Below are positions 3,575-17,532 of a DNA stretch of 40,838 nucleotides, in pieces. Source of the DNA: Nitrospirota bacterium (GTDB taxonomy: Bacteria > Nitrospirota > Thermodesulfovibrionia > SZUA-242). Within the stretch, counting starts at the first letter, position 1. Each line of letters starts with the position of its first letter. The translations under genes were made by a program, and so were the position numbers. Location: contig JACRHH010000039.1 of NCBI GenBank assembly GCA_016212095.1, positions 1 through 40,838 on the forward strand, read 5' to 3'. Under the pieces are notes generated by a model. The model saw nothing but the letters and a program-made list of their open reading frames with translations. It had not been told where the DNA came from and did no database searches.

Positions 3575-4351
3575 ATGTTGAATTTCGGCATGAAAGGTGC
3601 AACATCTGGGCCGGTGAATATGAGATTTACTACATTTATATATACGGTGATGGGTTGCGGCAGGCGGCCAGGTCAAAGAGGCGTGACATTTGTTGAACTC
3701 GTTGTGGTGCTTGCGCTTCTGGCCATTGTTGCGATGATTGCCGTGCCACAGTTCGGGCGCTTCGCCTCGCAGTCTCGCGTGAAGCGGGCCGCAACCGAGC
3801 TGTTCCAGAACATACGCCTTGCGCGCACGATGGCGATCAAGGAAAACCGGCAGTACCTGATAGTATTCGACACCGTCAATAACCGTTATTTCCTGGGGTT
3901 CGACGCTACCGGCGACAACGATCTTCTGGACGCAACCGACACATACGCACTATGCAACGACACCGACGGCGACCGGCTGCCCAACAGCAATCCTGACAAC
4001 AACGGCGACGGTGTGCCGGATTGCGTGAAAACATACCGGCTTGCGAATAATTACGGCCAGACCGTTCGGTTCGGCACATTGGCCGAGCGCCGGATGGACG
4101 GCGCGGCGATTGGCGCGGGCGACTGCAACGCCAGAACGGCCTGTTTTCAGGGAACCGATCCGATTCGCATAACCTTCAACGCCGACGGATCGGTCAATGA
4201 AACAGGCGAGGTCTATCTGGAAGAGTCTGATACCGGCATTGCCTATGCAATTTCGTTGAACAACAGCGCGGGCGATGTCGATCTGTGGCGATGGGAGGGC
4301 GATGCCGACACCCAGCCGGCAGCCGAGCCATACTGGACGGAGGTGAGGTAG
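3575..4351 (+). CDS. FimT/GspH-like type IV minor pseudopilin
   Basis: Minor pilin that would be cleaved by prepilin peptidase and help initiate the pilus. The leader ends in RPGQRG (G36) and is followed by VTFVELVVVLALLAIVAMIA: cleavage after Gly, Glu at +5 and a hydrophobic helix. The mature part holds an Asp-rich stretch (DTDGDRLPN, DNNGDGVPD) resembling EF-hand or thrombospondin-type-3 calcium loops. In-frame ATGs at 3620 and 3650 would give shorter leaders, and none of the starts has a clear ribosome site, so the start is uncertain. It is the first gene of the operon, 4 nt before pilV. GspH/FimT assignment rests on the N-terminus and position; it could equally be called FimU. Confidence 0.85.
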   Translation: MLNFGMKGATSGPVNMRFTTFIYTVMGCGRRPGQRGVTFVELVVVLALLAIVAMIAVPQFGRFASQSRVKRAATELFQNIRLARTMAIKENRQYLIVFDTVNNRYFLGFDATGDNDLLDATDTYALCNDTDGDRLPNSNPDNNGDGVPDCVKTYRLANNYGQTVRFGTLAERRMDGAAIGAGDCNARTACFQGTDPIRITFNADGSVNETGEVYLEESDTGIAYAISLNNSAGDVDLWRWEGDADTQPAAEPYWTEVR

Positions 4352-4355
4352 CAGG

Positions 4356-4859
4356 ATGCCTGACAACAGCCGTAACTCCGCCGGATTCTCGCTTGTGGAA
4401 GTGATGATAGCGATGGTTGTGCTTCTGATAGGCATTCTCGGCGTGATGGGAATGCAGTACCAGTCTGTCGCGGGTTCAACATCGAGCCGCGAGGTGCGGC
4501 TTGCATCGAACTTCGCCCAGCAGTTTGTGGAGCAGGTGCGTGCCACGCCATACACCTCCCTGACGTCCGGCATATTCAATCCGGGCAACACCGGCGTTGT
4601 GACAACCGGCGGCGTGACATTCACCCGCGCCATCTGGGTAAGCGGCAACTGCCTGAGCATGACGCTTCGCAACGATGACGAAAGCTGTGACGACGCCGAC
4701 GGCAACGGAGCGCTTGACGGCGTGCTTGTTCCGGTGTGCGACGAGGTGTTTCAGAACGTATCGGCAGTGCGCGCGCGCCTTTGCTGGCGCGACCGGCACA
4801 ACACGCTCCACACTGTCACCTTCGACACGGTGAGATGGGATGAAAATGCGAATCCTTGA
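4356..4859 (+). CDS. pilV: Type IV pilus minor pilin PilV
   Basis: A 167-residue prepilin with leader MPDNSRNSAG and mature start FSLVEVMIAMVVLLIGILGV (Glu at +5). The motif after the helix (GMQYQSVAGSTSSREVRLAS) matches PilV-family proteins, which form part of the priming complex with PilW, PilX and PilY1. A further Asp-rich loop, DDADGNGALDG, is visible. GAGG lies 7 nt before the ATG. The 3' end overlaps pilW by 20 nt, suggesting translational coupling. Family length is usual. Confidence 0.9.
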   Translation: MPDNSRNSAGFSLVEVMIAMVVLLIGILGVMGMQYQSVAGSTSSREVRLASNFAQQFVEQVRATPYTSLTSGIFNPGNTGVVTTGGVTFTRAIWVSGNCLSMTLRNDDESCDDADGNGALDGVLVPVCDEVFQNVSAVRARLCWRDRHNTLHTVTFDTVRWDENANP

Positions 4860-5829
4860 TGAATCCGGCTACAGCATGGCCGAACTGATGATATCAATCA
4901 TGCTCAGCTCAATTTTGATGGCCGCCGCCTATGCCACCTACACTACGCAGACAAGATCATATGCGCGTCAGGAGAACACCGGCGAGGTGAACACGCAGGC
5001 GCGCATCGCGTTGGGCATACTCACCGAGGACATCAAGTCGGAGGGTTTCGGCGTGCCTGCCGACATGAATTCCGAACCCATAAACGGACGAACCGCGCCA
5101 ATCGTCATCAACGATGCGGGAAACGGCCCGGACGCTATCACGCTTGTGAGCGGTTTTCGTCAGATCGGCACGCTCCAGAGCGCGGTTGCATCGGGCGCAA
5201 CGCAGATACGAATAAGCTACGGCGGAACTGCAATTCACCCCAATTCGACAGACAGGCGATACATCAGCATCGACGGTGTTTCGTTCAATGTGGTCACGAT
5301 AACGCAGAACGATCCGGTTTTCACTCTACGGGATGCGGTTCCCATTTCATTTCCAGCCGGAAGACCGGTTTATCTGGTCGAGGACGTCACCTACTGCGTG
5401 AGCTTCGCGGCAGGACAGACGGCGGGCGAACTGCGGAGGATAAGGCGCAACGCAAACGCCGCGCGCTGCGAGGCCGCCAACACATCCGACACGGAAGTGA
5501 TTGCGGGCAACGTGGAAGACATGCAGTTGGCCTATGCCGTCGATGCCGACGCCAGCGGGGCGATTGACGACCAGAACGGCAACGGACGGTTCGACGACGG
5601 CGATTATCTGTATAACGGCACAAATGCGGGCCTGATAACCAGCACATCCACGATCAAGGCTGTGCGCGTGAGCATCCTGGCCAGAAGCCCGCGCGAGGAT
5701 GCGAGCATGTCGGCGGTGATGACGCCTCCCGCCAGCATCGAAAACCGTTCAAGAGGCAACGCCGACGTGGTGACGGATCATTTCGTGCGGCGGTTGTGGA
5801 CAGGCATGGCAGCCAGAAGGAGCATGTGA
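4840..5829 (+). CDS. pilW: Type IV pilus minor pilin PilW
   Basis: A 329-residue prepilin with leader MKMRILDESG and mature start YSMAELMISIMLSSILMAAA (Glu at +5). The segment TYTTQTRSYARQENTGEVNT, followed by ARIALGILTEDI, is typical of PilW/ComGF-like minor pilins. Near residue 230-250 there is a calcium-loop-like run (AVDADASGAIDDQNGNGRFD). The start overlaps the end of pilV; ATG codons at 4840 and 4846 are both possible. Its stop shares one base with the pilX start (TGATG), so translation is probably coupled. Confidence 0.9.
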   Translation: MKMRILDESGYSMAELMISIMLSSILMAAAYATYTTQTRSYARQENTGEVNTQARIALGILTEDIKSEGFGVPADMNSEPINGRTAPIVINDAGNGPDAITLVSGFRQIGTLQSAVASGATQIRISYGGTAIHPNSTDRRYISIDGVSFNVVTITQNDPVFTLRDAVPISFPAGRPVYLVEDVTYCVSFAAGQTAGELRRIRRNANAARCEAANTSDTEVIAGNVEDMQLAYAVDADASGAIDDQNGNGRFDDGDYLYNGTNAGLITSTSTIKAVRVSILARSPREDASMSAVMTPPASIENRSRGNADVVTDHFVRRLWTGMAARRSM

Positions 5830-6353
5830 TGTTTATTGACTACCGGAGCGCGAATGAAAAGGGCTTTGTCCTGGTCGCCGTGATGCTGATTCTGCTTGTG
5901 CTCACCATCGTTGGAATCGCGGCGATGGGCACAACCGGCGTGGAGCATATGCTTTCGGGCAACATGAGGCTTCGCGAGGAGAACTCGGCGCGCGCCGACG
6001 GCGGCATGGAGATCATGTCGGGCCTGATAGAACAGATACTTAGAAACGGCGATACCGGCAATTTCGCGGGCATTATTACAGACGCCAACATGGTGACCGA
6101 GCTTAGAACCACTGCATTCGATGCCGACACAGCGGATGTGACGATCCCCGACATCGGAGTGGAGATCGACATAGACAAGATGTACACCAAGTGGATGGGC
6201 GGATCGGCGATGGAGTTTGCCGCCGGTTACGAAGGAGCCGGCAAGAGCGGGGCAACCGGCTCAAACACATATTACAGGGTGAACTCCCGAAGCACGGCTC
6301 TTGCGGGTTCCGAAGCGGAGGTTGGCTCCATCTACCGGTATGTAAGCAGGTAG
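5829..6353 (+). CDS. pilX: Type IV pilus assembly protein PilX
   Basis: A 174-residue protein with short leader MFIDYRSANEKG and hydrophobic helix FVLVAVMLILLVLTIVGIAA. It lacks Glu at +5, as PilX/GspK-type minor pilins do. The segment after the helix (GTTGVEHMLSGNMRLREENS) fits the PilX N-terminal family. The 5829 start is chosen over an upstream in-frame ATG (5796) because it overlaps the pilW stop by one base and gives a normal prepilin leader. It acts with PilV, PilW and PilY1 in pilus priming. Confidence 0.88.
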   Translation: MFIDYRSANEKGFVLVAVMLILLVLTIVGIAAMGTTGVEHMLSGNMRLREENSARADGGMEIMSGLIEQILRNGDTGNFAGIITDANMVTELRTTAFDADTADVTIPDIGVEIDIDKMYTKWMGGSAMEFAAGYEGAGKSGATGSNTYYRVNSRSTALAGSEAEVGSIYRYVSR

Positions 6354-6399: not shown

Positions 6400-6702
6400 A
6401 TGAGAACCACGCTTATTGGTCTGATGACTCTTCTTGTCCTTCTTTCCGCCATTTGCGGCGTGTGGGCCTACGACCGCGGCCATGTGTACATCAACGGCAA
6501 GGTGGAGGCGATCACCACCGGCACCATAACCATTGACGGGCAGACATACGACATAGAGCCGGATTGCCGCGTGATCCTGAACGTATCGCGAAACGGCGCG
6601 GTTTCGCAACGAGCCGGACGTCTGGCCGATATTGCGTTGGGCGACAAGGTTTACGCCAGACTTCTTGGCCGATCCATTTCCGAAATCCAGGTGGGGAGGT
6701 AG
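6400..6702 (+). CDS. Small secreted protein between pilX and pilY1
   Basis: 100 residues with a clear signal peptide (hydrophobic core LIGLMTLLVLLSAICG, likely cleavage after VWA at about residue 23), leaving roughly 77 residues that look all-beta, with alternating hydrophobic segments (VYINGKVEAITTGTITIDG, VYARLLGRSISEIQVG). A single Cys (DCRVIL) remains after cleavage. A GGAGG at 6383-6387 is rather far from the ATG. The stop lies 4 nt before pilY1, and the pilY1 ribosome site sits inside its end, so both are probably co-expressed. No family is recognised. The position suggests a periplasmic or tip-associated partner of PilY1 (inference). Confidence 0.8.
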   Translation: MRTTLIGLMTLLVLLSAICGVWAYDRGHVYINGKVEAITTGTITIDGQTYDIEPDCRVILNVSRNGAVSQRAGRLADIALGDKVYARLLGRSISEIQVGR

Positions 6703-6706
6703 CGTC

Positions 6707-9700
6707 ATGAAGCTGATTCGCGGCGTTTTCACCCCATGCTTTTCCATGCTTTTGCCCGCGGCGCTGTTCATCCTGGTCATGGCGTTTGCTCCCGGCACAG
6801 TAACGGCGGTAGCGCCGGATCCGGCTGCCGCCGACAGTGCCGCCGTTCCGCCATTTGTGAGCGATATTTCCCCTCCACTGGTCATGATGGTCATGGACAG
6901 GGATCACAAGCTTTATTACCAGGCATACGATGACGCGTCCGACCTCGACCAGGACGGCACTCTTGATGTGGGATATAACCACTCCACCGAATACTACGGA
7001 TACTTCGATCCGGGCAAGTGCTACACGTACAACACTTCGGGCAGCGGAGAATTCGATCCGGCAAGCGCGGCAATCAGCCGTTTTTGCTCATCAGGGCAGT
7101 GGAGCGGCAATGTGCTGAACTGGCTGGCAATGTCGCGCATGGATGCCCTGCGAAAGGTTCTCTATGGCGGCCATAGAAGCACCGACACTACTTCGGCCAC
7201 CGTGCTTGAGCGGGCCTATATCCCGCAGGACGGCCACAGTTGGGGCAAGGAATTCACCGGCAGGCTATGCTCATCCGGCTCAGGATACACCAGTCAATGC
7301 ATGACAGCTCTCGACTGCGCTGCCGGCGAAACCTGCGTGGACAGATCGCTGGAACTGATCGGCATGGCTGCTCCGTCAGCGCCCGCCACCTGTACGGCTG
7401 CCGCTGTGACAGATCCATGGGATACAACAGGCAGGATGCTTGTCGTCCGGTACGGCCATGCCGCATCGAAGGGGTGCGGTCTGAATCATACGTCGATGAT
7501 GGCCCAGTACGAGCCCGATAAATACCTGACGTATTTTTATGTCGATGACCTTAACGATCCGGCGCTCAACCCCTCAACCGATCATGCCGGAGACAATCTG
7601 AGCCTCTTTGGCGTGGCGGAATTCCAGGTGACCGTGGCCGGCGCAGGCAACTGGAGCTTTGCCATCGACGGCGACGACGATGTGGAAATCGAGATTGACG
7701 GCGTGGTCGTGTCGAACTATTACGGCTGCCACGGGCCGGTAAACAACCAGAGCCATTCCGGATCGATCGCCCTGGCTGCCGGTTGGCACAGACTGATCGT
7801 CAGGCACAACGAGGAAGGCGGTTGGGAGGGCTTCCGAGCCTGGTACAAGAAACCTGGCGACGCCGCATGGACTGTCTTTGGAAACACCCTGTCCATCCGC
7901 GCGCCCACCATAGTTGCCGGGAATACCTGCGCGCTGAAGTTCGGATCGTTTATCGAGACCGGCACGCCGGGAACCGGCACAGGCATATCCGGCATTGCCG
8001 AGCGCCATCTTTTCTGCAACACCACTCTCTCGGACGGCGGCGCGCCGGTTTTCCGTCTTCTGAAGGCCAGGCAGAACCGCATTTGGGAATGGGCATCGAA
8101 AGAGCGTCCGGTATGCGACACGTCGCTTGGCGCGCCCACCGACTATGTGGTTCGGGTCAAGGTCTGCGATGCGGCCTCCGGACTTGAGGGCAATTGCAAG
8201 GCATACATCAACAGCGCCGGGACAACAACATACAAGCCGTCCGGGATTCTTCAGAAATATGGCGAAGGCGACAGCAAGATATGCTCAAAAAGCTTTGCCG
8301 CCTGCACCGCCAACGCCGATTGCGCGCCCGATGGAGGCAACTGCATCTACAACGCCAAGATCTATTTTGGCCTGCTTACCGGCTCATACGAGAAAAACCT
8401 CAGCGGCGGCGTGGTTCGCAAGAACATCGGCAGCATCATGGACGAGATCGATCCGGGAACAGGCGTGTTCAACCTCTCGCTCAATTCTGGCGGCAACATA
8501 ATTCAAACCCTCGAACGGCTGAAAACCGTGGAGTACGACTACGGAAGCTACTCATACGGCAACTGCGGCTGGATTTCGACACGATCCATCAACGAGGGCG
8601 AGTGCCGCATGTGGGGCAACCCGACAGCCGAGATGATGTACGAGGCCACGAGGTATCTGGCAGGCAAGAGCGCCAGCACGCCTGCCTTCTGGTACGCAAC
8701 AGCAGCCGATCCGAACGACGCGGGACTGCGGCTGCCCAACATCGGAAGCGGCAGCGGGGCCGACAGCGCCTGGGTGAATCCGTTTAGCGTCTACCCGCAA
8801 TGCGCCCAGCCATTCATGCTGGTCATGAGCGACATAGATCCAAGCTACGACTCCGATTCCGTTCCGGGCAGCCATTTCAACTCTTTCTCAGGCGACCTTT
8901 CCGGTCTTGACGCTTCAACACTGGCCACGGCCATTGCAGGCGGCGAGAATATCGGTGGCGCTTACTTCATTGGCGAGAAGGGGGCGGCCAATGATTTCAT
9001 GTGTACGGCAAAGCCTGTCGGCAGCCTGAGCGACATCCGGGGCCTTTGCCCGGACGAACCCACGAAGAAGGGCAGTTTCTACTCCGCCTCGGTGGCGTAT
9101 TTCGGGCGCGAGAAGCTGAAAACCTGTACCGGCGACAGCGGCACGGCCTGTAGCAGCAACGCCGACTGCGCGGCGGTTGGCGGCAACTGCGAGCGCCGCG
9201 GTATTTCTACATACAGCGTGGCGTTGTCGTCGCCGGTTCCGAAGATCGAGATTCCATTCCCGTCGATAGGGTCGGCTGTCACGCTTGTGCCGGTCGGCAA
9301 ATCGGTCAGCGGCTGTCTGAACGTATCGACATCGTGCTCCGGAAAATGCGCTCTTTCCTATAACGCAGGCACCGGATTGAGCATAACGGGCTGCTCGTCC
9401 GGCGCATACTGTCCGTCGAATACGATCGTGAACCTGTATGTGGACAAGATCGAAGCGGACTACGGCCATTTCCGCATCAACTATGAAGACCAGGAGCAGG
9501 GCGCCGATTACGATATGGACGCTGTCGTCGAATACGAATATTGCAGGGGAAACAGATGCGCGCCGGCCATTGGGGCTAACCAGGTGAAGGTCAGGCTCAA
9601 TTCGATCTTTGCCGCCGGTTGCATAGACCAGGCCATGGGCTTTGTCATATCGGGAACAACCGGTGACGGCACATATCTGGCCGTTCGGGATACCGACTCC

Positions 9701-12298
9701 GGCTCCGGCCTGAGCGGAACCGGCATACCGTTAACATGGGAGAAAACCTTCACGGCATCGGGAAACGCCGCCGCGGGCCTTCTCAATAACCCGCTGTGGT
9801 ATTCCGCCAAATGGGGCGGTTTCAACGACATGGACGGCAGCGGAACCCCAAACCTGGCGTCTGAATGGGATCGCGACGGCGATGGGAATCCCAACACCTA
9901 TTTCTACGTGTCCAATCCGCTGCGCCTTGAGGCCGAACTGGAGTCCGCCTTCACGCAGATCATCAGCCGGGCATCCTCCGGCACGGCAATGAGCGTGCTT
10001 TCCACTTCCGGCGACGGCGACGGCGCAATGTATCAGGCATATTTCCTGCCCGAAAAAATCGAGGAGTCGTCAACCGTCAAGTGGCTTGGCTGTCTTCAGT
10101 CGTTTTTTGTCGATAAATACGGCAACATACGCGAGGATACAAACGGCAATGACGCCATGAACATGGGGAGCGACTACATAATCTCCCTCGATTTCGATCC
10201 CGATCAGGGCGCCATCATAAACAAATACGCCGATTCCAACGGCGACGGCATTAAAGACAGCGCCACTCCGGCGGCAACCCAGACGCTCGAAAACTTCAGC
10301 GCTCCGGTTTGGGACGGCGGAAAGAAACTTTGGGAGAAGAACGCCGCCGACAGGAAGATATTAACCACGATCAACGGCTACGACTTCACCGGGCTTGCAT
10401 CAAACCCCACGAAGGGCTATTTCCACGACGTCAACAATGTCGCGCTGAAACCGTGGCTCAGGGCGGCGGACAACACGGAATCGTCGAACATAATCAACTG
10501 GATACGCGGAGACGCGGTCAGCGGCTATCGTTCCCGTGACGTCGCCATCGGCGCTACTACTCGCGTCTGGAAGCTTGGCGATATCGTCTACTCCACGCCG
10601 GTTGCCGTGGGCAAGGCAACCGAGAATTACGACATCCTTTACAGCGACGCAACATATTCGGCCTACCGCTCGGCCAACCTCAGGCGCAGGCAGGCAGTGT
10701 ATGTTGGCGCCAACGACGGAATGCTTCATGCCTTCAACGGCGGCTATTACGATTCCACGAACAAGCGGTTCTGCACCGCGCTCGACGGAAGCGGATCATG
10801 CTCGAACGGCGCGCCGGAGCTTGGCGACGAGCTTTGGTCTTTCGTGCCGAGGGCGGCTCTTCCACACCTGAAATCGCTCACCGCCTCAACCTATTCGCAT
10901 GAGTATTATGTTGACCTGAAGCCGAAGGTTTCCGACGTGAAGCTGTTTACCGCCGACGCAACGCATGTATCCGGCTGGGGAACCGTGCTGCTGGGCGGCA
11001 TGAGGTACGGCGGCAAGGAGATGTCATGGACTTCCGGCGGATTGAGCTACGGCACGAAGTCCGAATATTTTGCCATGGACGTGACCGACCCCGCCAGTCC
11101 GCGCCTGCTCTGGACGTTCTCGCATTCGTCGCTTGGACAGACGATGTCGCAGCCGGCAATAGTGAAAACGTGCGCGCCCGGCGGATCGTGCAAATGGTTT
11201 GCGGTATTTGGCTCAGGGCCGTCCGGCTACGATTCGCAGTCGAACCTGTCCGGATTCGGCAACGGCTATGTTTTCGTGCTCGATCTCACTTCGGGCTCAA
11301 ACGGCGTCGTAAGCTCGTGGATTGAAAACAGCAATTACTGGCGCATATCCACCGGCCACGCATCGGCGTTTCTTGCCGACCCCGTGGCTGTTGACGTGGA
11401 CATGGATTACGACGCCGACGTGATTTATATCGGCGAGAACTTCAACGATTCCGGAGCCTGGAACGCACGATTGCTGCGGCTCACCACGGTTGCCGGAACG
11501 GAAAACAACCCTTCCAACTGGACTCGTTCGTTCGTTGCCGACGTGAACGCGATGGCAGGCGGCAACGATTCGGCCAGGCGGATCACATCGGCTCCCTCCG
11601 TTGCCATGGACGAACAGGGCAAATTGTGGTTGTATTTTGGAACCGGGCAGTTCCTTGGCGCCGGTGACAAGGCGTCCGGCGAGACAGGAGCCTTCTATGG
11701 AATCAAGGACTCGTGCTGGGACGGCTCATGCGCGGATTCCTACTCCGCCCTGGACGACATGTCCTCCAGCGTGATCTGCCTTGGGGGCGGCACCGCCTGT
11801 CCTTCGGGAACCGGGTTTGCATCGATAAGGCATGATCGCGGCTGGGTGATCTATTTCTCACGCATCCGGGAAACCACCGACTTTACAGGCGCCGCCCTGA
11901 ACCATGTCGGCGAACGCGTTGTTGCCAAGCCTATTGTGATCGGCGGACTGGTCGTCTGGACGACATACGCGCCCGGAACCGATGCTTGCAGCAGCGGAGG
12001 GGAGGGCAACCTCTATTCGGTCTATTACACGACAGGTTCGGCGTATAAAGACTACACAATGAAGGGCCAGAAAACGCGTGAAACCCGTAGCGGCCAGAAC
12101 AATGAGAATACCACCGTCAGCCGGGTTGTGAGGCTCGGAAGCGGAATGCCTTCGTCCGTCAGCGCCCAGATTACGAAGTCGGGGGTTGCCAAGGGCTTTG
12201 CGCAGTCTTCCACCGGCGCGGTTATCGAGGTCGAGAGCATAACGCCGGTGTCGATGAAGAGCAGGATCACGGGCTGGAAGGGCCGGAGGATTCCCTGA
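6707..12298 (+). CDS. pilY1: PilY1-family pilus tip protein, paralog A (Cys-rich, no MIDAS)
   Basis: Giant pilus-tip adhesin and assembly factor, 1863 residues. GGGGAGG at 6693-6699 fixes the ATG at 6707. A signal peptide (about 1-36) is followed by PPFVSDISPPLVMMVMDRDH; where the paralog has the MIDAS motif DNSAS, this copy has DRDHK, so the metal site is lost. An EF-hand-like DLDQDGTLD follows. Residues about 300-400 look PA14-like (FAIDGDDDVEIEIDG). Three Cys modules of pattern C-x6-9-C-x4-D-C-x5-6-C lie near residues 188, 526 and 807. From about residue 1080 comes the PilY1 C-terminal beta-propeller region, including VDVDMDYDADVIYIGENF, the probable calcium site. The C-terminal half is duplicated in the next gene. 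Confidence 0.93.
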   Translation: MKLIRGVFTPCFSMLLPAALFILVMAFAPGTVTAVAPDPAAADSAAVPPFVSDISPPLVMMVMDRDHKLYYQAYDDASDLDQDGTLDVGYNHSTEYYGYFDPGKCYTYNTSGSGEFDPASAAISRFCSSGQWSGNVLNWLAMSRMDALRKVLYGGHRSTDTTSATVLERAYIPQDGHSWGKEFTGRLCSSGSGYTSQCMTALDCAAGETCVDRSLELIGMAAPSAPATCTAAAVTDPWDTTGRMLVVRYGHAASKGCGLNHTSMMAQYEPDKYLTYFYVDDLNDPALNPSTDHAGDNLSLFGVAEFQVTVAGAGNWSFAIDGDDDVEIEIDGVVVSNYYGCHGPVNNQSHSGSIALAAGWHRLIVRHNEEGGWEGFRAWYKKPGDAAWTVFGNTLSIRAPTIVAGNTCALKFGSFIETGTPGTGTGISGIAERHLFCNTTLSDGGAPVFRLLKARQNRIWEWASKERPVCDTSLGAPTDYVVRVKVCDAASGLEGNCKAYINSAGTTTYKPSGILQKYGEGDSKICSKSFAACTANADCAPDGGNCIYNAKIYFGLLTGSYEKNLSGGVVRKNIGSIMDEIDPGTGVFNLSLNSGGNIIQTLERLKTVEYDYGSYSYGNCGWISTRSINEGECRMWGNPTAEMMYEATRYLAGKSASTPAFWYATAADPNDAGLRLPNIGSGSGADSAWVNPFSVYPQCAQPFMLVMSDIDPSYDSDSVPGSHFNSFSGDLSGLDASTLATAIAGGENIGGAYFIGEKGAANDFMCTAKPVGSLSDIRGLCPDEPTKKGSFYSASVAYFGREKLKTCTGDSGTACSSNADCAAVGGNCERRGISTYSVALSSPVPKIEIPFPSIGSAVTLVPVGKSVSGCLNVSTSCSGKCALSYNAGTGLSITGCSSGAYCPSNTIVNLYVDKIEADYGHFRINYEDQEQGADYDMDAVVEYEYCRGNRCAPAIGANQVKVRLNSIFAAGCIDQAMGFVISGTTGDGTYLAVRDTDSGSGLSGTGIPLTWEKTFTASGNAAAGLLNNPLWYSAKWGGFNDMDGSGTPNLASEWDRDGDGNPNTYFYVSNPLRLEAELESAFTQIISRASSGTAMSVLSTSGDGDGAMYQAYFLPEKIEESSTVKWLGCLQSFFVDKYGNIREDTNGNDAMNMGSDYIISLDFDPDQGAIINKYADSNGDGIKDSATPAATQTLENFSAPVWDGGKKLWEKNAADRKILTTINGYDFTGLASNPTKGYFHDVNNVALKPWLRAADNTESSNIINWIRGDAVSGYRSRDVAIGATTRVWKLGDIVYSTPVAVGKATENYDILYSDATYSAYRSANLRRRQAVYVGANDGMLHAFNGGYYDSTNKRFCTALDGSGSCSNGAPELGDELWSFVPRAALPHLKSLTASTYSHEYYVDLKPKVSDVKLFTADATHVSGWGTVLLGGMRYGGKEMSWTSGGLSYGTKSEYFAMDVTDPASPRLLWTFSHSSLGQTMSQPAIVKTCAPGGSCKWFAVFGSGPSGYDSQSNLSGFGNGYVFVLDLTSGSNGVVSSWIENSNYWRISTGHASAFLADPVAVDVDMDYDADVIYIGENFNDSGAWNARLLRLTTVAGTENNPSNWTRSFVADVNAMAGGNDSARRITSAPSVAMDEQGKLWLYFGTGQFLGAGDKASGETGAFYGIKDSCWDGSCADSYSALDDMSSSVICLGGGTACPSGTGFASIRHDRGWVIYFSRIRETTDFTGAALNHVGERVVAKPIVIGGLVVWTTYAPGTDACSSGGEGNLYSVYYTTGSAYKDYTMKGQKTRETRSGQNNENTTVSRVVRLGSGMPSSVSAQITKSGVAKGFAQSSTGAVIEVESITPVSMKSRITGWKGRRIP
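9950..12298 (+). repeat. Diverged direct duplication, copy 1 (pilY1 A 3' half)
   Basis: The 3' half of the first pilY1 gene matches that of the second at DNA level, with long exact blocks such as CAGGCGCAGGCAGGCAGTGT at 10681 and 15146. The protein runs parallel from AMYQAYFLPEK to the C-terminal GWKGRRIP. The duplication boundary near 9950 is approximate. This copy keeps the 249-bp segment 11444-11692. Confidence 0.85.
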
Positions 12299-12329: not shown

Positions 12330-15300
12330 ATGAAGAGAACATGCATGTTGATACTTGCGCTTATGGTTGTCCTGATTCCTGTGCGGATCGCATTCGCCGA
12401 CGATGATGACGACGATGGCGACAACGGTTTTACCGCCACCCCGCCGTTTGTGTCGGTCAACGTGAAGCCGAACATGCTTCTGCTGCTTGATAATTCGGCC
12501 AGCATGAACGATCTGGAATACATCAACGATTCCACGAGCGGCATATATTGCTACGCGAACAATTACAGCAACGCGGGCAATTACGCCGGATACTTCGATC
12601 AGACGAAGATATACGCGTGGGATTCCGGCGACAACTGGTTCGAGTCAATCGACGCGCTGTCGGCCTCATGCAGCCACCGGACGCCGTATCTGTGCGTGGA
12701 CATCGTAGGCGCGGCGGTAACGAAATTCCAGGCTTCAGGCAGGTTCCTGAACTGGCTTTCGGCCTCGAAGATTGATGTGCTAAAGAAAATACTCACCGGC
12801 GGAAAGATGATCCATGTAAACGAGGGCGAGGATCATCACGACGGCGAGCACCATCATGGCGAGGATAACGATGACGACGGCCACCATCACGCCCTGTCGG
12901 CTGAGTCGCGCGGATGCCTTGGCAAGCGGTTCATCAAGGCCGCGCCGTCGGCGGACTTCACGACAGGCGGCGCGATAACATTCGGCATTAACGCGGCCTA
13001 CACCAGCGCCACCGACCCGCTCGTTCTCTCGGCTGGGGCCAATACGAAAATCGAGATATTTTCAGGCACTTACAACGCAACCGCCTGCCAGAACGCCATC
13101 GCCAATATCGACAACCAGGGGCAGTTCAAGCAGAACCTGATCGACTGCTTCAACCTCGGCGGCCCCGACAACAGCTTCAACGGCGCGGCCCGCGCCGCGT
13201 TCAACGTATCGACGCAGTCATGCGTGAAGCTTAACCGGGGGCAGGCGATTCCAAACGGCGATTACGTAAGCCTGAAGAACCATTGCAAGAAATTGTACGA
13301 AAGCATCGCTCCCGCCAATATCAAGGTGACCGACGGCTACTATGTATGCGCCGACGCGGCGCTGAAGCCCGGATCGTATCTGGGCCAGTGCTGGGTGGAC
13401 AACGGCAACAACTGGTCGGCCAACGGAAATTGCGAGCAGACCCAGCTTGCGGCATACTGCGGCTACATGAATTCGCCGCAGGTTGTCGATCCGTCCGATT
13501 CGCCGACGCCGACCGGCGGCATGTCGAACCTTCCGGCCATCTTGAACGACTCCGGCATTCTCGGCCAGCTTGGCCAGCCAAAGGGATCTTTCCCGGTGAA
13601 GATACAGGTTCCTCACGGCGACGATCATATCACCGGGACAAGCGGACTGATCCCGGAGTTCGATTCCGAGATACGCTTTGGCGCGATGCGCTTCAACTAC
13701 TGCGGCTCGGCCTCCGAGAGCGCATTGGACAGCGATATCAGGTATGTTTGCAAGGATCCGGCAAACTCCGCGACGCCGGACAGGGACGGCGGAAAGATAA
13801 TCAGCTACATAGGCTCGCATCATGACGATGACGACGATCACGGTGAGGGCGTCAGCGAGGCGGTGAACGACATGCAGGCCGCCACATGGACGCCGTTTGC
13901 TGAGGCGTACTACAACGCCATTGCCTATTTCGTGAAGGACGCCACGGTATTCAGCACGACAAACTCACCGGTAAAAAACCCGCTCAACGCGACAGACTTC
14001 GAATCCGGAAGGAATCCGATCCAGTATCAGTGCCAGCCCAACAACGTGCTGATAATATCCGACGGCGGTTCCACGGCAGACCTGAACGCCACGATGACGG
14101 CGAAGGCCACGGTGAATCCGTACAAGGACGCCGACGTCATCGACCGCAACAACTGCGGCATGTATTCCGGCAGCACATATGTTGACGATCTGTCGTGGTT
14201 TGCGAAAAACAAGAATATCTTCGATCCGAACGCAGCCAAAACCCAGGCAGGGCAGAGCATTTCGACATGGGTTGTCTATACCGGAGCACAGCAGAACAGC
14301 GAAACCGGCGAGTGCCATCCGATGACCTTGATGCAGAACACCGCGACAAACGGCGGAACAACCATGTATGCCGCCACCGACGCCGATTCGCTTGAAACAA
14401 GCCTCGGCAGCATATTCTCGGAGGTCTCCAAAAAGTCGGCCTCCGGAACCGGCGTGAGCGTGCTTGCGACATCCGGCGACGGCGAGGGCGCGATGTATCA
14501 GGCCTATTTCCTGCCGGAAAAGACGGAAGGATCGTCGGCAAGGCAGTGGCTCGGATACCTTCAGGCCTTCTTCGTGGACAAATACGGCAACATGCGCGAG
14601 GACACGAACGCCGACGACAGGCTGACGCTCACAAGCGACAACATAATCGAGATGGCCTATGACGCGGATCAGGGCACGCTGATAAAAAAATACGCCGACG
14701 CAAACGGCGACGGCGCAAGGGACAGCGCCGATCCGTCTTCCACCGTCACCATCGAGAATTTCAGCTCTCCGATATGGGACGGCGGAAAGAAGCTCTGGGA
14801 GAAGAACGCCGCCGACAGGAAGATATTCACAACGATAAACGGCTACGACTTCACCGGCCTTTCATCGAACGCGACGAAGGGATATTTCCACGACGGCAAC
14901 AACGCGGAGCTCAAGCCGTGGCTCAGGGCTGCGGACAACACCGAGTCCTCGAACATAATCAACTGGATACGCGGCGATGCCGTAGGCGGTTATCGCTCGC
15001 GCGACATAACCATGGGCGGCGCGACGCATGTCTGGAAGCTTGGCGACATCGTCTATTCCACGCCGGTTGCCGTGAGCAAGGCCACCGAGAATTACGACAT
15101 TATCTACAACGACACAACGTATTCGGCCTATCGTTCCGCCAACATCAGGCGCAGGCAGGCAGTGTATGTTGGCGCGAACGACGGAATGCTGCACGCCTTC
15201 AACGGCGGCTATTACGACTCGACGAACAAGCGGTTCTGCACCGCGCTCGACGGAAGCGGATTATGCACAAGCGGCTCGCCCGAGCTGGGCGACGAACTTT

Positions 15301-16628
15301 GGTCTTTCGTGCCGAGGGCGGCGCTTCCGCATCTGAAATCGCTTACGGCGTCCAACTATGCTCACGAGTACTATGTCGATCTGAAGCCGAAGATCTCCGA
15401 CGTGAAGATATTCTCAAGCGACGCAACACACGCATCCGGCTGGGGAACCGTTCTGATAGGCGGCATGAGATTCGGCGGCAAGCAGATTTCCTGGACTTCC
15501 GGCGGATCGAGCTACAGCACGAAGCCCGAATACTTCGCCATGGACGTGACCGATCCCGCCAGCCCGCGCCTGCTCTGGACATTCTCGCATTCGTCGCTTG
15601 GACAGACGATGTCGCAGCCGGCAATCGTGAAAACATGCGCGTCCGGCGGTTCGTGCAAGTGGTTTGCCGTGTTCGGCTCCGGGCCGTCAGGCTACGATTC
15701 GCAGTCGAACCTGTCCGGATTCGGAAACGGCTATGTTTTCGTGCTCGATCTCACGTCAGGCTCAAACGGTGTTATAAGCTCATGGACGGAAAACAGCAAT
15801 TACTGGCGCATCTCAACCGGACATTCATCGGCGTTTCTTGCCGATCCGGTGGTTGTTGACGTTGACATGGATTACGACGCCGACGTGATCTATATCGGCG
15901 AGAATTTCTCGACCGGCGGCGAGCATGACGGCGACGATGATGACGACGACCATGAGGGCGACGATGACGATGATGACCATAATAGCAGCGGGGAATCGCC
16001 CGGCGGATCGGCCACCGGCGCTTTCTATGGCCTGAAGGACGATTGCTGGGACGCGACATGCGCAACCGCATACACAAGCCTCGACGAGATGTCGTCAACC
16101 ACGGTCTGCCTTGGCGGCGGCGCGTCATGCTCAGGCGGAACCGCATTCAATTCGATAACTCATGCGCGCGGCTGGGTGAACTACTTCTCGCGGATGCGCG
16201 AAACAACCGACTATACCGGCGCGGCGTTGAACCACACCGGCGAGCGGATGTTCTCGAAACCGCTGGTAATCGGCGGCCTGGTCACCTGGACGACCTTCGT
16301 TCCCGGAACCGACTCATGCAGCACCGGCGGCGAAGGCAACCTGTATTCCGTCTATTACACGACAGGCAGCGCGTTCAAGGGCTACACCATGAAGGGCCAG
16401 AAGACGCAGGAGGCAAGCAGCGGCCCGAACAATGAGAACACCATCGTCAGCCGAGTCGTGAGGCTCGGAAGCGGAATGCCTTCGGCCATGAGCGCGCAGA
16501 TCACGAAGTCTGGCTCGGCGAAGGGTTTTGCACAGTCTTCCACCGGAGCCATTGTTGAGGTGGAGAGCATCACGCCGGTTTCGATGAAGAGCGTGACAAC
16601 CGGCTGGAAGGGCAGAAGGATTCCGTAA
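12330..16628 (+). CDS. pilY1: PilY1-family pilus tip protein, paralog B (vWA MIDAS, His/Asp tracts)
   Basis: Second PilY1, 1432 residues, 31 nt after the first; GAGGTG precedes the ATG. Signal peptide ends near IAFA (22-23), followed by DDDDDDGD. The MIDAS motif D54-N-S56-A-S58 is intact, which fits a von Willebrand A domain; the distal Asp in LIISDGG (about nt 14050) is consistent. His/Asp-rich tracts occur at residues about 168-187, 497-507 and 1196-1217. From about residue 690 the sequence parallels paralog A, with AMYQAYFLPEK, YVGANDGMLHAFNGGYYDST and VDVDMDYDADVIYIGENF. After ENF, about 83 residues of paralog A are replaced by about 38, mostly Asp, Gly and His. No Cys modules of the paralog A type were seen. 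Confidence 0.93.
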   Translation: MKRTCMLILALMVVLIPVRIAFADDDDDDGDNGFTATPPFVSVNVKPNMLLLLDNSASMNDLEYINDSTSGIYCYANNYSNAGNYAGYFDQTKIYAWDSGDNWFESIDALSASCSHRTPYLCVDIVGAAVTKFQASGRFLNWLSASKIDVLKKILTGGKMIHVNEGEDHHDGEHHHGEDNDDDGHHHALSAESRGCLGKRFIKAAPSADFTTGGAITFGINAAYTSATDPLVLSAGANTKIEIFSGTYNATACQNAIANIDNQGQFKQNLIDCFNLGGPDNSFNGAARAAFNVSTQSCVKLNRGQAIPNGDYVSLKNHCKKLYESIAPANIKVTDGYYVCADAALKPGSYLGQCWVDNGNNWSANGNCEQTQLAAYCGYMNSPQVVDPSDSPTPTGGMSNLPAILNDSGILGQLGQPKGSFPVKIQVPHGDDHITGTSGLIPEFDSEIRFGAMRFNYCGSASESALDSDIRYVCKDPANSATPDRDGGKIISYIGSHHDDDDDHGEGVSEAVNDMQAATWTPFAEAYYNAIAYFVKDATVFSTTNSPVKNPLNATDFESGRNPIQYQCQPNNVLIISDGGSTADLNATMTAKATVNPYKDADVIDRNNCGMYSGSTYVDDLSWFAKNKNIFDPNAAKTQAGQSISTWVVYTGAQQNSETGECHPMTLMQNTATNGGTTMYAATDADSLETSLGSIFSEVSKKSASGTGVSVLATSGDGEGAMYQAYFLPEKTEGSSARQWLGYLQAFFVDKYGNMREDTNADDRLTLTSDNIIEMAYDADQGTLIKKYADANGDGARDSADPSSTVTIENFSSPIWDGGKKLWEKNAADRKIFTTINGYDFTGLSSNATKGYFHDGNNAELKPWLRAADNTESSNIINWIRGDAVGGYRSRDITMGGATHVWKLGDIVYSTPVAVSKATENYDIIYNDTTYSAYRSANIRRRQAVYVGANDGMLHAFNGGYYDSTNKRFCTALDGSGLCTSGSPELGDELWSFVPRAALPHLKSLTASNYAHEYYVDLKPKISDVKIFSSDATHASGWGTVLIGGMRFGGKQISWTSGGSSYSTKPEYFAMDVTDPASPRLLWTFSHSSLGQTMSQPAIVKTCASGGSCKWFAVFGSGPSGYDSQSNLSGFGNGYVFVLDLTSGSNGVISSWTENSNYWRISTGHSSAFLADPVVVDVDMDYDADVIYIGENFSTGGEHDGDDDDDDHEGDDDDDDHNSSGESPGGSATGAFYGLKDDCWDATCATAYTSLDEMSSTTVCLGGGASCSGGTAFNSITHARGWVNYFSRMRETTDYTGAALNHTGERMFSKPLVIGGLVTWTTFVPGTDSCSTGGEGNLYSVYYTTGSAFKGYTMKGQKTQEASSGPNNENTIVSRVVRLGSGMPSAMSAQITKSGSAKGFAQSSTGAIVEVESITPVSMKSVTTGWKGRRIP
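14405..16628 (+). repeat. Diverged direct duplication, copy 2 (pilY1 B 3' half)
   Basis: This is the partner of the copy starting near 9950. It is collinear except at 15909-16022, where 114 bp of GAC/GAT/CAT-rich sequence stand in place of 249 bp in copy 1; the frame is kept. The 5' halves of the two genes are not obviously alignable beyond the signal peptide and first strand. Confidence 0.85.
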
Positions 16629-16632
16629 CGTA

Positions 16633-17532
16633 ATGCCCATGAAAGCACTGGCCGGATTACTGATTCTGTTCATGGGCGTCGGGGCGGTTTCATGCCGCCC
16701 CGCGCAGGATAGGGAATCTGCGCCGGTTACGCCCAAGGCAGCCGACACTCAGACCTCACAGCAACGGATCATGCCTCATCTGGTTCCCGAACATGCCGTC
16801 AGATCATCGAAAATCAGGGTTGAATTGCCCGCGGCCCTGACCAGGGGCAATGTGATCGAGTGGCACTTGAACGGCATGAAATTCCCGACCGCCGGATCAT
16901 CGCGCGAGTTCCCGGCGAATCTGATCAAGCGGGATGATGTGCTGCAAGCGTATATAGTGAACGACGGCGAACGCATCGCCTCGAACAGGATAATCGTCCG
17001 CAATTCGCCGCCCGTTATTACACGCGCCGTTATAATGCCGGAGCGCCCTTCCGCCGCATCGAAGGTGGCTGTTCATGTGACGGCTGAGGATGACGACAAC
17101 GACATTGTTTTTTTTCGCTATGCATGGATCGTAAACGGCAAGCGGTCGGGAGAGGGGCCTGAGCTTAAAGAGCCGTTGAAGCGTGGCGACCGCTTGACCG
17201 TTGAGGTTTATCCCGCCGACGGCAGGGAATCGGGTATGCCCGTAACGCTGAAAACCGAGGCCGTCAACGCGCCTCCGGTTGTGAAGGACGGCACTGACGA
17301 GTTTGACGGCGCGACATACAGGTACAGGATGAACGCTGTCGATCCGGATGGCGACATCCCTGCATACACACTTGCACAGGGGCCGGTTGGCATGAAACTG
17401 GACTCAACCACAGGCGTGGCAACCTGGGAATCCGGCGATGCTTCGGGCGAATATCAGGTGGCGGTTGCCGTGACCGACGGACACGGAGGTAAAACAGTCT
17501 TTGGCTGGCGGGTGAGCGTGGGCAGGAAATAA
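16633..17532 (+). CDS. Lipoprotein with Ig/cadherin-like domains, end of pilus operon
   Basis: 299 residues. The N-terminus MPMKALAGLLILFMGVGAVS followed by Cys21 is a type II lipoprotein signal; Arg at +2 does not suggest inner-membrane retention, so an outer-membrane location is likely. After a polar linker there are three beta-sandwich-like segments: about 50-115, then PPVITRAVIMPERPSAASKV onward, and a C-terminal putative Ig domain with AVDPDGDIPAY and DSTTGVATW, typical of He_PIG/cadherin-like folds. It begins 4 nt after the second pilY1 stop without a clear ribosome site (ATG 16633 or 16639), so it is probably co-translated. A role in anchoring or exporting PilY1 is inference from position. 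Confidence 0.85.
   Translation: MPMKALAGLLILFMGVGAVSCRPAQDRESAPVTPKAADTQTSQQRIMPHLVPEHAVRSSKIRVELPAALTRGNVIEWHLNGMKFPTAGSSREFPANLIKRDDVLQAYIVNDGERIASNRIIVRNSPPVITRAVIMPERPSAASKVAVHVTAEDDDNDIVFFRYAWIVNGKRSGEGPELKEPLKRGDRLTVEVYPADGRESGMPVTLKTEAVNAPPVVKDGTDEFDGATYRYRMNAVDPDGDIPAYTLAQGPVGMKLDSTTGVATWESGDASGEYQVAVAVTDGHGGKTVFGWRVSVGRK

What the first reader, a model, noticed from the sequence alone, without database searches (positions are those of the whole stretch)
12330..16628. His/Asp-rich tracts unique to the second PilY1, one replacing part of the beta-propeller
Paralog B carries acidic/His runs at residues about 24-29, 168-187, 497-507 and 1196-1217. The last sits at 15909-16022, exactly where paralog A has 83 residues of propeller sequence ending WLYFGTGQFLGAG. 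Paralog A has none of these tracts. PilY1 is known to bind calcium in the propeller and to sit at the pilus tip. His/Asp runs suggest binding of transition metals (Zn, Ni, Cu, Fe) and hence a pilus tip that senses or adheres to metal or mineral surfaces. That function is inference; the substitution is directly visible.
Basis: partly seen in the sequence, partly recalled or inferred. Interest (0 to 1): 0.78.

Follow-up and report, generated by a model that had tools for sequence, protein, structure and literature searches.

The report
Pilus-tip protein missing one blade
A Nitrospirota bacterium carries two side-by-side pilus-tip (PilY1) genes, and in the second a stretch of about one "blade" of the protein's ring-shaped domain has been replaced by a floppy aspartate/histidine-rich loop, one of four such loops in that protein, which may let the pilus tip bind metal ions or mineral surfaces.

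Summary
Confirmed. PilY1 paralog B (12330-16628, 1432 aa) has four Asp/His-rich tracts (residues 24-33, 164-187, 497-507, 1196-1218); paralog A has none. They are not chance: four of the seven penta-Asp places in the 2.97-Mb genome are in this gene. The fourth tract lies in a 35-residue block (15909-16013) that stands where A has 80 residues of propeller (11444-11683). About 30 same-class propellers keep that segment, and none of 396 phylum genomes searched showed another loss.

(1) By predicted strands and alignment, the missing piece is C and D of one blade plus A and B of the next: one blade's worth, in register, with the tract as the new B-C loop. The EF-hand-like calcium motif (15858-15884) is kept. 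(2) B is a chimera: its propeller is sister to A's, its N-terminal domain belongs to another PilY1 type. The loss is therefore derived, after the A/B propellers separated. dN/dS of 0.10-0.17 and branch lengths like A's argue against decay.

Metal or mineral binding remains inference. Tracts 1 and 4 are nearly all Asp (calcium/magnesium-like); only tract 2 is His-rich enough to suggest zinc, nickel or copper. A six-bladed ring is likely but not shown. New variant of a known kind.

The parts
12330..16628 (+). PilY1 paralog B, 1432 aa, intact ORF
   Evidence: Pfam PF05567 E 8.8e-17, match ends at profile position 273 of 411
12399..12428 (+). Tract 1, residues 24-33 DDDDDDGDNG, at the expected mature N-terminus after the signal peptide (...AFA)
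   Evidence: signal peptide by inspection
12489..12503 (+). MIDAS-like DxSxS (DNSAS, residues 54-58) in the N-terminal domain of B; absent at the matching place in A
   Evidence: motif scan; no Pfam VWA match
12819..12890 (+). Tract 2, residues 164-187, the His-rich one (8 His, 10 acidic)
   Evidence: insertion relative to N-terminal orthologs
13818..13850 (+). Tract 3, residues 497-507 HHDDDDDHGEG, in a loop of variable length among orthologs
15858..15884 (+). EF-hand-like calcium motif DVDMDYDAD (1177-1185), kept; aligns with the calcium loop of P. aeruginosa PilY1 3HX6
   Evidence: phmmer alignment of A to 3HX6
15909..16013 (+). 35-residue replacement block (1194-1228) with tract 4; joins strand B of one blade to strand C of the next
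   Evidence: model pLDDT below 50 over local residues 522-550
6707..12298 (+). PilY1 paralog A (the listed ORF starts TTG 6632; ATG 6707 before a signal peptide is likelier)
11444..11683 (+). 80 residues of A (1605-1684) absent from B: predicted strands C, D of one blade and A, B of the next
   Evidence: DSSP of model; segment HMM hits A at 2.7e-35, B not significantly
3575..6353 (+). Minor pilin genes upstream: GspH-like, N-methyl pilin, PilW, PilX_N
   Evidence: Pfam
16633..17532 (+). Ig-domain lipoprotein-like ORF starting 4 bases after the B stop codon, probably the same operon
   Evidence: Pfam He_PIG E 1.3e-6; sequence

Best explanation
B is a working second PilY1 tip adhesin, encoded with A behind one set of minor pilins. 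Shown from sequence: its N-terminal domain is of a different PilY1 type from A's, while its propeller is a copy of, or was homogenised with, A's. After that, B lost one blade's worth of the ring and gained an acidic/His loop at the join; three more such tracts sit at the mature N-terminus and in variable loops of the N-terminal domain. Predicted: the loss is in register, so strand B of the calcium blade now pairs through the tract with strand C of the next blade, and the tract hangs out as a disordered loop. Inferred: the four tracts form exposed, highly negative bristles that bind divalent cations (Ca2+/Mg2+ by the Asp runs, Zn2+/Ni2+/Cu2+ by the His-rich tract 2) and give the pilus tip cation-dependent adhesion to mineral or cell surfaces, as an alternative to tip A. 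I put the structural part at about 0.75 and the cation-binding adhesion at about 0.4.
For: Alignment of A and B at the junction. Strand order in the models: A has strands 508-517, 520-529, 542-548, 567-570, 576-581, 598-604; B goes from strand 511-518 through a disordered 522-550 to strand 556-561. The HMM of the missing segment matches 125 of 142 full-length PilY1s and not B. Trees: A+B propellers sister 100/100, but N-termini apart, B with G038 (100/98) and A with G001 (100/100). dN/dS 0.10-0.17 on both sides of the tract, and B propeller branch 0.072 against 0.13 for A. Four of seven penta-Asp places of the genome are in this one gene. In relatives a DDDDDH run is kept at one place in a secreted collagen-like protein of four genomes while its codons differ, so such runs can be under protein-level constraint.
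Against: No metal-binding measurement. No close relative of the species is held, so constancy of the tract cannot be tested. The B model is poorer than A's (pLDDT 74.6 against 80.2; TM to 3HX6 0.43 against 0.67), so ring closure is not shown. Coordinates of the models could not be inspected. No other PilY1 has a D/H run in this loop.
Confidence: 0.5

Rival explanations
1. The tracts are disordered low-complexity spacers with no metal role: the blade was lost by a chance recombination between the equivalent B-C loops of neighbouring blades, the ring tolerated it, and acidic sequence is merely a harmless, soluble linker.
For: Tracts 1-3 sit at places of variable length in homologs; model confidence over tract 4 is 23-30; no tract at the same site in any homolog.
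Against: Four separate tracts of the same unusual make-up in one gene of a genome that otherwise almost lacks them; His, not only acid, is enriched (14 of the 30 His of B lie in 68 tract residues); mixed codons rather than slippage.
Confidence: 0.3
2. B is a decaying or regulatory paralog: with a broken propeller it no longer docks on the minor pilins and no longer primes pili.
For: The propeller is the part that contacts minor pilins in Myxococcus (PMC8833165) and B lacks a blade; the model fits 3HX6 worse than A's.
Against: Intact 1432-codon frame; dN/dS 0.10-0.17 before and after the tract; B branch not longer than A's in the propeller (0.072 against 0.13) and similar in the C-terminal part (0.21 against 0.17).
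Confidence: 0.12
3. Assembly artefact: the A/B repeat was mis-joined and the tract is spurious.
For: Draft genome in 39 contigs; A and B are up to 98% identical over 60-base stretches.
Against: The block is not from A, is in frame, and matches three other tracts of the same gene, a make-up found almost nowhere else in this genome.
Confidence: 0.03

Closest known systems
PilY1 / PilC tip adhesins with PF05567 propeller (P. aeruginosa PilY1, PDB 3HX6)
   Same: Propeller and C-terminus, EF-hand-like calcium motif, minor pilin operon, two paralogs in one genome
   Different: One blade's worth missing in B, replaced by a D/H loop; three further D/H tracts; calcium motif has Tyr where the consensus has Gly
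Xanthomonas and Stenotrophomonas PilY1 with an Asp- and Gly-rich sequence in place of the calcium motif (PMC3123361)
   Same: Acidic sequence altering a propeller loop of PilY1
   Different: There the calcium loop itself is changed (DrwGGasqtDGvrDGyaD); here it is kept and the tract is in another loop with a blade lost
Disordered His-rich loops that bind zinc in periplasmic proteins, e.g. PA4063 (PMC8561739, abstract)
   Same: Disordered His-rich loops on a folded domain; works-like only
   Different: No homology shown; the weak ZrgA match of tract 2 (E 2.1) is not significant; tracts 1 and 4 are Asp, hardly His
PilY1 of G048 with GCHDGDHHDDGDHGQNHDPIQSKC (L033-11044, residues 342-353)
   Same: A D/H loop in a PilY1 of the same class
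   Different: In the N-terminal domain at another site, between two cysteines; propeller intact; apparently independent

Membership tests
PilY1 (PF05567) | Match to the PilY1 propeller profile above the curated cut-off | tested here: met
   61.6 bits against 28.1, though only profile positions 1-273 of 411
PilY1 (PF05567) | Complete seven-bladed ring as in 3HX6 | tested here: not met
   80-residue segment holding four predicted strands absent; TM to 3HX6 0.43 against 0.67 for A. Filed as a variant for this reason
PilY1 (PF05567) | EF-hand-like calcium motif Dx[DN]xDGxxD | tested here: inconclusive
   DVDMDYDAD has all four Asp but Tyr for Gly, as in class homologs (DxDYDVD); M. xanthus PilY1.1 has Asn there and depends on calcium (PMC8833165)
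PilY1 (PF05567) | Gene next to minor pilins | tested here: met
   GspH, N_methyl, PilW, PilX_N upstream
PilY1 (PF05567) | Surface or pilus-tip location and pilus priming | not testable with these tools
   signal peptide seen by eye only
Metal-binding D/H proteins (works-like) | Measured divalent-cation binding | not testable with these tools
   sequence composition only
ZrgA zinc protein (PF10986) | Significant profile match | tested here: not met
   E 2.1, 8.8 bits against 27.4

The most novel reading that the evidence does not exclude
PilY1 B is a six-bladed tip adhesin whose lost blade was traded for a cation-binding loop; with the other three D/H tracts it makes a dedicated metal- or mineral-recognising pilus tip, deployed from the same minor pilin set as the ordinary tip A.
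Probability: 0.2. Interest if true: 0.72.

Novelty: new variant of a known kind. Interest (0 to 1): 0.5.

Why it matters
Seven-bladed PilY1 is the standard pilus-tip and priming protein. A constrained natural variant that has shed one blade in register, beside an ordinary paralog that shares its propeller, is a natural experiment on which blades are needed for priming, calcium switching and minor-pilin docking. If the tracts bind metal or mineral, they would also give a direct, testable route by which a type IV pilus recognises an inorganic surface.

Tried and rejected
Genome-wide D/H habit: rejected, penta-Asp runs are otherwise at only three places in the genome, in unrelated proteins, and His runs are hardly enriched (17 against 13 in the control). 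Codon-repeat slippage: no sign. A second PilY1 with the same loss: not found in 396 genomes of the phylum or about 147 long PilY1 ORFs; the 16 full-length ORFs besides B without a segment-HMM match look like distant types or are cut at a contig end, and were not each resolved. HSPs of G032, G040 and G050 that run through the tract looked like other losses, but these proteins hold the full segment. Structure search of B: only 3HX6 is a strong match, no six-bladed template stands out. Literature: no paper found on D/H tracts in PilY1 or PilY1 in Nitrospirota in the held library. Pfam VWA domain in the N-terminus: no match.

Full report
What was checked. The window is the whole of contig C34 of a 2.97-Mb draft genome. 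Matching contig numbers and lengths between relatives and named records (G046:C107, 8478 bases = CAMYND010000107.1, 'Thermodesulfovibrionia bacterium'; G088:C26 = DRDE01000026.1; G002:C108 = JALUUO010000108.1, both 'Nitrospirae bacterium') places it in Nitrospirota, class Thermodesulfovibrionia (inference). Minor pilin genes (3575-6353) precede two PilY1 genes, A (about 6707-12298) and B (12330-16628), 31 bases apart.

The observation. B has four D/H tracts and A none. Tract 1 follows the signal peptide; tract 2 is an insertion and tract 3 lies in a loop of variable length when compared with N-terminal orthologs; tract 4 replaces conserved sequence. The tracts are far beyond chance and specific to this gene: penta-Asp codon runs occur at seven places in the genome, four of them here, and (GAY)5CAY only here. 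The Asp codons are mixed and neighbouring codons agree less often than random choice would give (9 of 25), so these are not fresh repeats.

The replacement. B residues 1194-1228 (35 aa) stand where A has 1605-1684 (80 aa). In the class alignment the stretch from the calcium-motif end to TGAF is 95-124 residues in complete homologs; B has 53. An HMM of the missing segment matches 125 of 142 full-length PilY1 ORFs, A at 2.7e-35, and B not at all. A search of 396 genomes of the phylum with B's junction found no second case.

What the missing piece is. A aligns with P. aeruginosa PilY1 3HX6, described as a seven-bladed propeller (PMC3123361, PMC13190605), so that DVDMDYDAD falls on its calcium loop and the missing segment on the following sequence up to LYGIWD. 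In the AlphaFold model of A the region runs: strand 508-517 (DADVIYIGEN), 520-529, 542-548, then 567-570, 576-581 (LWLYFGT), 598-604 (GAFYGIK). In B strand 511-518 (DVIYIGEN) runs into a disordered stretch 522-550 and then strand 556-561 (GAFYGL). Reading each blade as four strands A-D, B has lost C and D of one blade and A and B of the next: one blade's worth, in register, with the D/H tract as the B-C loop of a chimeric blade. Ring closure with six blades is an inference; the model's fit to 3HX6 drops from TM 0.67 to 0.43, as a lost blade would cause, but a poor model would do the same. By general propeller topology A-B and B-C loops lie on opposite faces, so the tract is probably not beside the calcium site.

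History. Propellers of A and B are sisters with full support; their N-terminal domains are not: B's groups with a PilY1 of G038 and A's with one of G001. So the propeller was copied or homogenised between two PilY1s with different heads, and the loss in B came later, because A and the outgroups all keep the segment. Nucleotide identity between A and B is about 80-98% through most of the propeller and falls to about 65% just after the tract. dN/dS of 0.10 to 0.17 on both sides, and B branches no longer than A's in the propeller, argue that B is still constrained.

How it may work. Composition suggests divalent-cation binding: tracts 1 and 4 are almost pure Asp (7 acids and 0 His; 15 acids and 3 His), tract 2 is mixed (10 acids, 8 His), tract 3 has 6 acids and 3 His. 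By established chemistry Asp runs favour Ca2+/Mg2+ and His favours Zn2+, Ni2+, Cu2+. B also has a MIDAS-like DNSAS at 54-58 that A lacks. In relatives a DDDDDH run stands at the same place of a secreted collagen-like protein in four genomes while its codons differ, and a cytochrome with seven CxxCH motifs in two genomes ends in a similar D/H tail; these show that such runs can be kept at protein level outside the cell. I therefore favour cation-dependent adhesion at the pilus tip, at about 0.4, with a functionless spacer as the main rival.

Known or new. B is a PilY1 by profile, operon and calcium motif, but does not meet the full-ring feature, so it is filed as a variant. The nearest published parallel is an Asp/Gly-rich replacement of the calcium motif in Xanthomonas-type PilY1 (PMC3123361), at a different loop. 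I found no published D/H-tract PilY1 in the held library.

Noticed in passing
A and B; also L033, L039, L031, L037/L038: PilY1 propellers of one genome tend to group together while the N-terminal domains belong to different types: heads appear to be swapped on a homogenised propeller.
   Followed up: partly
L033, PilY1 ORF from 1011 to about 4958 on the minus strand, residues 342-353: A PilY1 of G048 has its own D/H loop, GCHDGDHHDDGDHGQNHDPIQSKC, between cysteines in the N-terminal domain.
   Followed up: partly
L143, L144, L145, L146: Secreted collagen-like proteins of four genomes keep DDDDDH at the same position with different codons.
   Followed up: partly
L141, L142: Cytochromes with seven CxxCH motifs end in DDDDDDHDGEHGDHDGDDD-like tails.
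   Followed up: no
6632-6706: The listed start of A (TTG 6632) is probably too early; ATG 6707 precedes a signal peptide.
   Followed up: no
window B residue 881, A residue 1292: RGD occurs in both propellers and aligns with the RGD of P. aeruginosa PilY1 in 3HX6, so it looks like a family feature, not an integrin adaptation.
   Followed up: no
L122, ORF at +3418, residues 476-490: A Marinagarivorans PilY1-like ORF has a run of ten Asp.
   Followed up: no
16633-17532: Ig-domain lipoprotein-like ORF directly after B, probably in the same operon.
   Followed up: no
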